Positions 4,515 to 63,812 of a DNA stretch of 64,000 nucleotides are shown one piece after another (position 1 is the first letter of the stretch; every line of letters begins with the position of its first letter). Source of the DNA: Acidobacteriota bacterium (GTDB taxonomy: Bacteria; Acidobacteriota; Vicinamibacteria; Vicinamibacterales; JAFNAJ01). Made by a program: the position numbers and the translations under genes. The notes below the pieces were generated by a model. It had not been told where the DNA came from. It saw only the letters and a list, made by a program, of their open reading frames with translations, and ran no database searches. Location of the stretch: contig JAHDVP010000002.1 of the NCBI GenBank assembly GCA_023384575.1, positions 71,479 through 135,478 on the forward strand, written 5' to 3'.

Positions 4515-4543
4515 ATTATCCCGCAGAACACTTACGCTGTCTC
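4515..4543 (-). promoter_or_regulatory. der promoter
   Basis: Minus strand: -35 GAGACA (4538-4543), 17-bp spacer, -10 GATAAT (4515-4520). The predicted +1 is 4508, the A of the der start codon. The -35 lies in the left arm and loop of the palindrome 4528-4559. Confidence 0.6.
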
Positions 4544-4559
4544 TTGACAGCGTAAGTGT
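4528..4559. promoter_or_regulatory. perfect 14-bp inverted repeat, likely operator
   Basis: ACACTTACGCTGTC and its exact complement GACAGCGTAAGTGT are separated by TCTT. It covers both -35 hexamers of two back-to-back promoters, so one bound protein could control der and the rightward transcript. It is not followed by a T-run in either gene's direction that would make it a terminator for an upstream gene. It does not fit the CTGT-N8-ACAG spacing of the enterobacterial LexA box. Confidence 0.65.
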
Positions 4560-4572
4560 CTGTTTTTATGAT
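4544..4572 (+). promoter_or_regulatory. near-consensus sigma-70 promoter reading into the HU leader
   Basis: -35 TTGACA (4544-4549), spacer exactly 17 bp, -10 TATGAT (4567-4572), predicted +1 about 4579. The first good gene downstream is the HU/IHF gene 409 bp away. The intervening RNA would contain the inverted repeat element at 4594-4788. Confidence 0.75.
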
Positions 4573-4593: not shown

Positions 4594-4680
4594 GCTAAGC
4601 CTGATCCGACAATCTGGCTGGCGGCTACAGGCTGGTGGCCTGGTTGGAGAAATCAGCGACTGAACGACTGGCATGCGCTT
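4594..4680 (+). repeat. diverged partial copy of the dispersed element (left arm)
   Basis: GGCTAAGCCTGATCCGACA and the following GGCTGGCGGCTA read in the same direction as the element copy at 32770-32884, with roughly three quarters identity over about 30 bases by eye. It faces the copy at 4686-4787, so the two could pair into a long imperfect hairpin if transcribed. The similarity fades after about 4645. Confidence 0.45.
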
Positions 4681-4685
4681 CACTG

Positions 4686-4787
4686 CCAGTGAGGTGACCG
4701 ATCACGGAGAAGACGGCGATCGTCATCGTGCTGGCCGGTAGCCGCTGGGCCGGTCGTCGCGAGCCGAATGTCGGATCGGGGCTAAGC
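4686..4787 (-). repeat. dispersed non-coding element, full copy A
   Basis: Read on the minus strand this matches the copy at 32770-32884 from CCGATCCGACATTCGGCT to GGTCACCTCACTGG. By hand there are about 12 differences over about 95 aligned bases, apart from a 14-bp duplication in the other copy. No credible reading frame covers it. The short palindrome CACTGCCAGTG (4681-4691) marks its end. Confidence 0.7.
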
Positions 4788-4987
4788 CCTTCGACTCACA
4801 GGTGCGGGACACATCGTTCGCTCAGAACTCAGTGCAGAGCGAGCGGCACGGCGGCAGGAGACGTCGAGGTCTTCGCAAGTCGAAGCACTAAGCCTCCGGC
4901 AAACAACTTCGCGGCACCAGGGCGCTGCTTCGCGAGCCGCGGAAGCGGGTTGCCGGGCCGTGGCCTGGGGGACATCAGGATTCAGAC
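4788..4987 (+). other. untranslated region before the HU gene
   Basis: 200 bp without a supported gene. It contains a small hairpin around 4867-4889 (CTTCG / CGAAG) and ends in CAGGATTCAGAC before the HU start codon, a weak ribosome site. I see no known riboswitch. It is likely leader of the transcript from 4579. Confidence 0.5.
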
Positions 4988-5260
4988 ATGATCAAAGTCG
5001 ACATCGTCAACGAGGTGTCCAGGGCGGCGGACATCACCAAGGTCAAGGCCGAGGTCGCGGTCGACGCCGTCTTCGACGCCATGCGATTGTCGATGCAGCG
5101 GGGCGAACGCATCGAACTGCGCGGCTTCGGGGTGTTCCAGGTGAAGCCGCGTAAGCGCGGCATCGGCCGGAACCCGCGGACCGGCAAGGAGGTCAGGATT
5201 CCGCCCGGGCGCACGATCCGATTCAAGCCCGGCAAGGACCTGCAGAACATCGGCGGTTGA
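4988..5260 (+). CDS. HU/IHF-family DNA-binding protein
   Basis: 90 residues, standard length. The DNA-wrapping arm shows RNPRTG (61-66) and IPPGRTIRFKPGK (71-83). The hydrophobic core GFGVFQV (47-53) is typical. HU/IHF dimers bend DNA and help shape the nucleoid. IHF-type site preference cannot be judged from sequence alone. It is preceded by a 409-nt potential leader from a strong promoter and overlaps the start of the M50 protease gene by 4 bp, suggesting coupling. An HU/IHF gene, a small MerR gene and tRNA-Pro lie within 3 kb, the trio also linked in pseudomonads as I recall it, though there next to each other. Confidence 0.93.
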   Translation: MIKVDIVNEVSRAADITKVKAEVAVDAVFDAMRLSMQRGERIELRGFGVFQVKPRKRGIGRNPRTGKEVRIPPGRTIRFKPGKDLQNIGG

Positions 5261-32647: not shown

Positions 32648-32979
32648 CAGGGCGTCTCCAGTGACGGGCCTTCGCAGGGCGGTCCAGACACCTTGCCGTC
32701 GACCGAGCCGACAGCCGGGTCAGTATACGGGAGGCCCCTGTGAGTGTCTACCCCTCGATATTGCTGAGAGTTAGGCCCGATACGACATTCGGCTTGCGAT
32801 GACCGGCTGGCGGCGACCGGCTGGCGGCGACCGGCCAGCCCGGATGAAGATCGCCGTCCTCTCCCTGATCGGTGACCTCACTGGGAGGCTTGGAGCGGTC
32901 GTGACGGTGGCGCGGGTGCCGGGGCGGTGAGACACCCGGATGCTATGATCGGGGGGCCGGGTGGCTGGCCCGGATTCCC
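32648..32979. other. 332-bp divergent intergenic region
   Basis: Between bactofilin (-) and cysteine desulfurase (+). It holds the second full copy of the dispersed element (32770-32884). A TATGAT at 32944-32949 is a possible -10 for the desulfurase gene without a good -35. A GATATT near 32759 precedes the element. No gene is supported. Confidence 0.6.
32770..32884 (+). repeat. dispersed non-coding element, full copy B
   Basis: Runs from GTTAGGCCCGATACGACATT to GGTGACCTCACTGG. Matches copy A (4686-4787, inverted) at about 85-87% by hand alignment. It contains a perfect 14-bp tandem duplication (GACCGGCTGGCGGC at 32801 and 32815) absent from copy A. The partial copy at 63665 shares GACATTCGGCTTGCG exactly. 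Confidence 0.75.
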
Positions 32980-62764: not shown

Positions 62765-63676
62765 ATGGTGCCGGCAGCCGCGTCGACGGTCGTCGTGATG
62801 CGCGATCGCGCGGACACGTCCCGGGGAGGCGGCCTCGAAGTGTACTTGCTCCGGCGTGCGGCCGGGGCGGCATTCCTGGCCGATGCGTGTGTCTTCCCGG
62901 GCGGACGCGTCGATGCCGCGCTCGACGCCGCGCTGGCCGAATCGCTGGCCGGCGCGATGGCCTCGCTCCCCGTTCCGTCGCTGGCCCGTCCCGGAGAGTA
63001 TGCCCTGCACCTTGCCGCCGGGCTGCGCGAGTTGTTCGAGGAAGCCGGCCTGCTGCTGGCCGACACATCCGACGGCACCGACATCGCGCTCGATGCCGGC
63101 ACCCTGCCGCTTGCCGCGCTCCGCCACGCGGTGGCGTCGGGTCGCACCCCTCTCGAGCAGGCCTGCACCAGCCTCGGCGGCCGGCTGAGGCCCGAACGAC
63201 TCGTGCCCCAGTCGCGGTGGATCACCCCGCCGGGCGAGGCCCGACGCTTCGACACGTGGGTGTTCCTCGCCCAGGCGCCAGCCGGGCAAACGCCGTCGCC
63301 CGACGGCGGGGAGACCTCCGCCGGCCGGTGGGTGGCGCCAGCTGACGCCCTCGCCCGCGCTGAAGCCGGCGAGATGATCCTGGCGCCGCCAACCTCCCGC
63401 ACGCTCGAGCACCTGCTGCCGTTCCGGTCGGTCGCCGAGGCCCTCGAGGCGGCCAGACGCGTGGCGCCCGCCACCTATGCCCCGATGCCGGTGCGCACGC
63501 CGGATGGCGACTGCATGGTGCTGCCCGGCGACCCGCTCTACCCGGTCGAGGGGCCGGGTGCCCCGCTGGGGATCCCCGTTCCAGGCGCCACCCGGTTCCA
63601 GCGGATCGGCGGGCGCTGGCGATCGGTCGACGCTGTTACGATCGCGCCCCGTTTCACCACTACGTCTTCACCGTGA
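62765..63676 (+). CDS. Nudix hydrolase with split Nudix box
   Basis: 303 residues from the ATG at 62765. The ATG at 62753 falls inside the -10, so it is unlikely. VYLLRRAAGAAFLADACVFPGG opens the Nudix fold. The REUxEExGU part is RELFEEAGLL, but it lies about 50 residues after the first glycine, so the box is interrupted by an insertion, as in mammalian NUDT19. Catalytic glutamates are kept. NUDT19 cleaves CoA and similar diphosphates. The substrate here is not known. The stop is followed at once by a partial copy of the dispersed element. Confidence 0.85.
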   Translation: MVPAAASTVVVMRDRADTSRGGGLEVYLLRRAAGAAFLADACVFPGGRVDAALDAALAESLAGAMASLPVPSLARPGEYALHLAAGLRELFEEAGLLLADTSDGTDIALDAGTLPLAALRHAVASGRTPLEQACTSLGGRLRPERLVPQSRWITPPGEARRFDTWVFLAQAPAGQTPSPDGGETSAGRWVAPADALARAEAGEMILAPPTSRTLEHLLPFRSVAEALEAARRVAPATYAPMPVRTPDGDCMVLPGDPLYPVEGPGAPLGIPVPGATRFQRIGGRWRSVDAVTIAPRFTTTSSP

Positions 63677-63730
63677 TGGGACATTCGGCTTGCGGCGAAC
63701 GGCCTGTGGCAACCGACCGGCACGCTGCGG
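63665..63730 (+). repeat. dispersed non-coding element, partial copy C
   Basis: GACATTCGGCTTGCG (63680-63694) is identical to copy B and the next 30 bases are related (CGAACGGCC...AACCGACCGG). The similarity then stops. It begins inside the last codons of the Nudix gene, in the same orientation as copy B. Confidence 0.55.
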
Positions 63731-63812
63731 ACTGGGGTCCCCGACCCGACGCCCGGGATCGCCAGCCGGCTCGTCGTCTCGAGAAGGTTGCGCGCGAGGG
63801 GGCGATCCAACC

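What the first reader, a model, noticed from the sequence alone, without database searches (positions are those of the whole stretch)
4594..4788. A dispersed, transcribed-looking non-coding element with an inverted partner
A roughly 100-bp element occurs as copy A (4686-4787, minus), copy B (32770-32884, plus) and partial copy C (63665-63730, plus). A diverged fourth piece (4594 to about 4645) faces copy A, so 4594-4788 could fold into one long hairpin. A and B are about 85-87% alike by hand, conserved at both ends, with no reading frame. Copy A starts 15 bp after the predicted start of a near-consensus promoter. This may be a structured RNA, a MITE/REP-like mobile element, or both. I do not recognise it as a known family.
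Basis: seen in the sequence. Interest (0 to 1): 0.72.

Follow-up and report, generated by a model that had tools for sequence, protein, structure and literature searches.

The report
Orphan miniature transposon family
The repeat is a short non-coding jumping-DNA element, present in about 60 copies in this bacterial genome, and one copy has landed between the conserved promoter and the start of a DNA-packing protein gene; it is a new family of a well-known kind of element, not a structured RNA.

Summary
Copy A and the "diverged piece facing it" are the two terminal inverted repeats of one 183-bp element (4599-4781). Its genome has at least 63 places matching it, 44 with both ends, mostly 182-191 bp. 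Ends are CCCCAATCCGACATTCGGC...GCCGGATTGTCACATTGGGG; the arms contain 7-bp repeats.

Forty-four copies show a 4-bp CTAG-like (YTRR) direct flank duplication (9 exact versus 1.5 expected, 0 of 20,000 shuffles). In five order relatives the der/HU promoter is conserved without the insert (leader 23-34 nt versus 415 nt). Copy B is also absent from seven relatives. Copies avoid genes (46 of 50).

Terminal pairing does not covary, so the long hairpin follows from the inverted repeats; a conserved RNA is not supported. The genome's one Y1 transposase gene has different ends, against REP/RAYT. No DDE_Tnp_1, DDE_Tnp_1_4 or DDE_5 transposase was found, so the family looks orphaned or its driver is unassembled. 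Apparent copies in a sister genus come from a contig matching this genome at 100%.

Verdict: a new, lineage-restricted MITE family. Ordinary in kind; the insertion in the HU leader is the interesting detail.

The parts
4595..4598 (.). CTAA, left copy of the 4-bp target duplication of copy A
   Evidence: matches 4782-4785; family-wide direct flank identity above shuffles
4599..4781 (-). Copy A: full-length element (both terminal inverted repeats)
   Evidence: profile 2-187 of 188, E = 3e-53
4782..4785 (.). CTAA, right copy of the 4-bp target duplication of copy A
4544..4572 (+). Conserved sigma-70-type promoter of the HU gene (TTGACA-17-TATGAT), not part of the element
   Evidence: 11 of 12; same position and closely similar sequence upstream of HU in five relatives
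4988..5257 (+). HU/IHF-type DNA-binding protein gene whose leader carries copy A
   Evidence: Pfam PF00216, E = 1.6e-26
32775..32896 (+). Copy B: left half of the element with a two-heptamer expansion; flanked outside by TTAG; lies between divergent bactofilin and cysteine desulfurase genes
   Evidence: profile 1-103, E = 8e-23; absent from seven relatives
63675..63734 (+). Copy C: decayed left-end fragment
   Evidence: profile 4-63, E = 9e-7

Best explanation
It is a miniature inverted-repeat transposable element (MITE): a non-coding DNA of about 183-190 bp whose imperfect terminal inverted repeats were recognised in trans by a DDE-type transposase. The transposase cut it out or copied it and joined it to a 4-bp staggered cut at CTAG-like (YTRR) sites, mostly between genes. 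Shown here: anatomy, copy number, target duplication, intergenic bias, absence at the orthologous sites of relatives, lack of covariation. Inferred: the DDE mechanism and the lost or unassembled driver. Copy A landed between the HU promoter and the HU gene, so it is probably transcribed in the HU leader as a passive stable hairpin; an effect on HU expression is possible but untested.
For: 63 places, 44 with both ends. Conserved ends and no conserved frame: copies differ by exact 7-bp indels. 4-bp direct flank identity 9/44 exact vs 1.48 expected, 0/20,000 shuffles; at least 3 of 4 matching in 19 vs 8.6, P = 0.00015; inverted control not significant. Empty sites: HU leader 23-34 nt in five relatives vs 415 nt here with the same promoter; bactofilin/cysteine desulfurase gap about 163-215 bp in six relatives vs 333 bp here, no element. 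46 of 50 copies outside predicted genes. Copies up to 100% identical (outside a 7-bp gap) at different sites imply fairly recent movement. Further subfamilies share ends and flank type.
Against: No autonomous partner was found: no PF01609, PF13701 or PF13546 match in the genome. Many copies no longer have matching flanks, so the duplication is statistical rather than universal. Numerous half elements (left-only, right-only) are less typical of MITEs. The five smallest contigs are masked.
Confidence: 0.9

Rival explanations
1. A structured non-coding RNA (family) kept by selection, with the long hairpin as its functional fold.
For: Copy A folds far better than shuffles on both strands (z = -5.9 and -4.1) and lies behind a strong conserved promoter.
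Against: Terminal pairing covaries less than shuffled columns; consensus folding has 1 of 27 pairs with a double change, covariation term -0.48; no Rfam match; the promoter belongs to HU and exists in relatives without the element.
Confidence: 0.04
2. REPIN/REP-type element moved by a RAYT or TIR-associated Y1 tyrosine transposase.
For: Inverted arrangement, extragenic placement, presence of solo halves; the genome has one Y1 transposase gene.
Against: That gene's flanking repeat is AAAAGGGGACACTCATCTTT / AAAGATGAGTGTCCCCTTT, unrelated to these ends; flanks are direct 4-bp repeats, not expected for Y1 transposition; arms are long and no REP-like GTAG-tagged short palindrome was seen.
Confidence: 0.04
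3. Copy A is a MITE that has been co-opted as a regulatory 5' leader (for example RNase III-processed) of the HU mRNA.
For: It sits between the conserved promoter and HU, in a leader extended to 415 nt, with a hairpin of about -98 kcal/mol; transcripts carrying Correia elements are cut by RNase III (PMC10969869).
Against: No evidence of selection on the fold; the insertion is unique to this genome among those compared; no expression data.
Confidence: 0.1

Closest known systems
Bacterial MITEs (NEMIS/Correia, ERIC, RUP, Nezha)
   Same: 70-300 bp, no coding capacity, 15-30 bp terminal inverted repeats, dozens of intergenic copies, strong hairpin if transcribed (description in PMC3733652, PMC10969869)
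   Different: 4-bp CTAG-like target duplication; arms built of variable 7-bp repeats; no autonomous partner found. Sequence relatedness to these families was not compared directly
IS5-family IS427-group elements such as IS711 (YTAR targets)
   Same: YTAR-like target preference (PMC2266754 for IS711; the group assignment is from general knowledge)
   Different: IS711 duplicates only TA; no PF01609-type transposase was found in this genome; the end sequence was not compared with an IS library
REPINs / GTAG-tagged REPs with RAYT, and TIR-type Y1 transposons (TIRtrons, PMC3733652)
   Same: Short extragenic inverted repeats with solo halves; a Y1 transposase gene is present
   Different: The Y1 gene's ends differ; direct flank duplication; longer element

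Membership tests
MITE | Short (about 70-300 bp), non-coding, multicopy | tested here: met
   170-192 bp; 63 places; 7-bp indels break any frame
MITE | Terminal inverted repeats | tested here: met
   CCCCRATCCGACATTCGGC / CCC(C/T)RATNNGACAATCYGGC
MITE | Target-site duplication | tested here: met
   4 bp, 9/44 exact vs 1.5 expected, 0/20,000 shuffles; inverted control negative
MITE | Mobility: site occupied here, empty in relatives | tested here: met
   Copies A and B
MITE | Related autonomous transposon with the same ends | tested here: inconclusive
   PF01609, PF13701, PF13546 without a match; other transposase families untested; five smallest contigs masked
REPIN / RAYT-mobilised REP | Ends match the repeats flanking the genome's Y1 transposase | tested here: not met
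Structured RNA family | Compensatory base changes in the proposed helix | tested here: not met
Structured RNA family | Match to a curated RNA family | tested here: not met
IS5/IS427-derived MITE | DDE_Tnp_1 partner in the genome | tested here: not met

The most novel reading that the evidence does not exclude
The arms of variable 7-bp repeats are multiple binding sites for an undescribed CTAG-targeting transposase, part of an order-wide system of heptamer-armed miniature elements with no known driver.
Probability: 0.12. Interest if true: 0.5.

Novelty: new member of a known kind. Interest (0 to 1): 0.3.

Why it matters
It adds a high-copy, apparently lineage-restricted MITE family and gives two clean occupied/empty site pairs, one of which rebuilt the 5' leader of the HU gene. 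It is a usable test of whether a MITE hairpin alters expression of a core nucleoid protein. It also shows that a convincing hairpin behind a strong promoter can be an insertion rather than a functional RNA.

Tried and rejected
Structured RNA: rejected on covariation and Rfam. REP/RAYT: the Y1 gene has other ends. Parent transposase: PF13701, PF01609 and PF13546 gave nothing; small contigs were fetched to find the body of a repeat at two contig ends, without success, and the five smallest are masked. One-ended sites examined for a larger element run into ordinary sequence or other subfamilies. Sister-genus copies in G003: rejected as a cross-binned contig (100% identity over 3 kb at two loci). 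The exact end pattern in 84,980 genomes gave one hit in a Phycisphaerae contig with no transposase evident nearby, which is chance level. Viral contigs and plasmids gave nothing. Most weak order-wide model hits look like heptamer-rich or coding sequence.

Full report
What is there. The finding's copy A and the 'diverged fourth piece' are the two ends of one element, 4599-4781 on the minus strand. It has imperfect terminal inverted repeats and is flanked by CTAA at 4595-4598 and 4782-4785. Copy B (32775-32896) is a left half with two extra heptamers, and copy C (63675-63734) is a decayed left-end fragment.

Copy number. The window lies in G000, a 5.89-Mb assembly of 112 contigs. A profile built from 11 full copies, run over the fetched loci, gives 63 independent places, 44 with both ends. 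This is a lower bound, because only fetched loci were scanned. A 20-base core with up to three mismatches occurs 59 times against one for the reversed control.

Anatomy. Forty aligned copies average 82.6% pairwise identity, with a maximum of 100%, and measure 170-192 bp. The arms contain 7-bp repeats (CGGCTNG / GCCGCCA type), and copies differ by exact 7-bp gaps, so no reading frame is kept. Other subfamilies share the ends and flank type but have different interiors.

Target duplication. The best-fitting offset is 4 bp directly outside CCCC...GGGG. Left and right 4-mers are identical in 9 of 44 copies (mean 1.48 in 20,000 shuffles, none as high). They match at 3 or more positions in 19 (mean 8.6, P = 0.00015). 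The inverted control is not significant. The target consensus is Y-T-R-R, a CTAG-like palindrome. The offset was chosen as the best of 25 tried for each length, so the P values are somewhat optimistic.

Empty sites. The divergent der/HU pair is conserved in G001-G005. So is the HU promoter, TTGACAGCGTAAGT...TATGAT or close to it. Counted by eye, the HU start codon follows the -10 box by 23-34 nt in the five relatives and by 415 nt in the window. None of the five loci has the element. G003 has a run of N upstream of its promoter, not between promoter and HU. The insert comprises copy A, a second short inverted-repeat element (4789-4887, flanked by CTAAGCC on both sides) and about 90 further bases. 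For copy B, the bactofilin/cysteine desulfurase gap is 333 bp here and about 163-215 bp in the six relatives where both gene starts align, with no element in any of seven.

Placement. With a simple codon-composition gene caller (conservative: 73% coding in the window), 46 of 50 copies have their midpoint outside genes. No strand arrangement dominates.

Structure. Copy A is a strong hairpin on both strands. Across 40 copies, however, the terminal helix covaries less than shuffled letters and the consensus fold is weak. The fold is a by-product of inverted repeats.

Distribution. Of the four genomes held for the family, only G000 has the element. G003's two copies lie on contig C57, where the two tested 3-kb stretches are 100% identical to G000 contig C7; C57 is therefore probably cross-binned. 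A sequence model over 149 genomes of the order finds distant full-length relatives in G033 (best E = 4e-16). One site is shared by G033 and G051, which suggests inheritance within that genus. The exact end pattern is otherwise absent from genome and viral collections beyond chance, and a full copy has no match in plasmids; the window's own genome may be left out of those.

Driver. No DDE_Tnp_1, DDE_Tnp_1_4 or DDE_5 gene was found. The only Y1 transposase gene carries unrelated ends. Two contigs (C46, C102) end in the same repeat, inserted at CTAG, once inside an element copy. It could be a current CTAG-targeting transposon, but its body is not assembled. The driver is therefore unknown.

Function. 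The element most likely has no dedicated function. Copy A may be transcribed in the HU leader; comparable MITE hairpins can be processed by RNase III (PMC10969869). That effect is untested here.

Noticed in passing
window 4789-4887: A second short inverted-repeat element (CTTCGACT...AGTCGAAG) flanked by CTAAGCC direct repeats (4782-4788, 4888-4894), next to copy A in the HU leader; 4783-4987 has a 70% match over 127 bp elsewhere in the genome (L141).
   Followed up: partly
L025 about 1342-1500 (G000:C65): A different MITE (TCCCCTGGAATCGTGA ends, about 160 bp, CTAG duplication) is nested inside a copy of this element.
   Followed up: partly
G000 contigs C46 and C102, first 53 bases: Both contigs start in the same repeat, inserted at CTAG (once inside an element copy): probable unassembled CTAG-targeting transposon.
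   Followed up: partly
window 4528-4572: The HU promoter overlaps a 14-bp perfect palindrome (ACACTTACGCTGTC/GACAGCGTAAGTGT); the -35 with GCGTAAGT-like sequence is conserved across the order, possibly an operator.
   Followed up: partly
L217 1240-2165 (G000:C28): Single Y1 transposase gene flanked by inverted GGGGACACTCATCTTT repeats.
   Followed up: yes
G003:C57 (L176-L178): Two tested stretches of about 3 kb are 100% identical to G000:C7: likely cross-binned contig in the G003 assembly.
   Followed up: yes
L063, L082-L090 and similar (family f11 genomes): Intergenic inverted arrays of CGGCTNG/CGACTGG-type heptamers without the CCCC ends recur in another family of the order.
   Followed up: no
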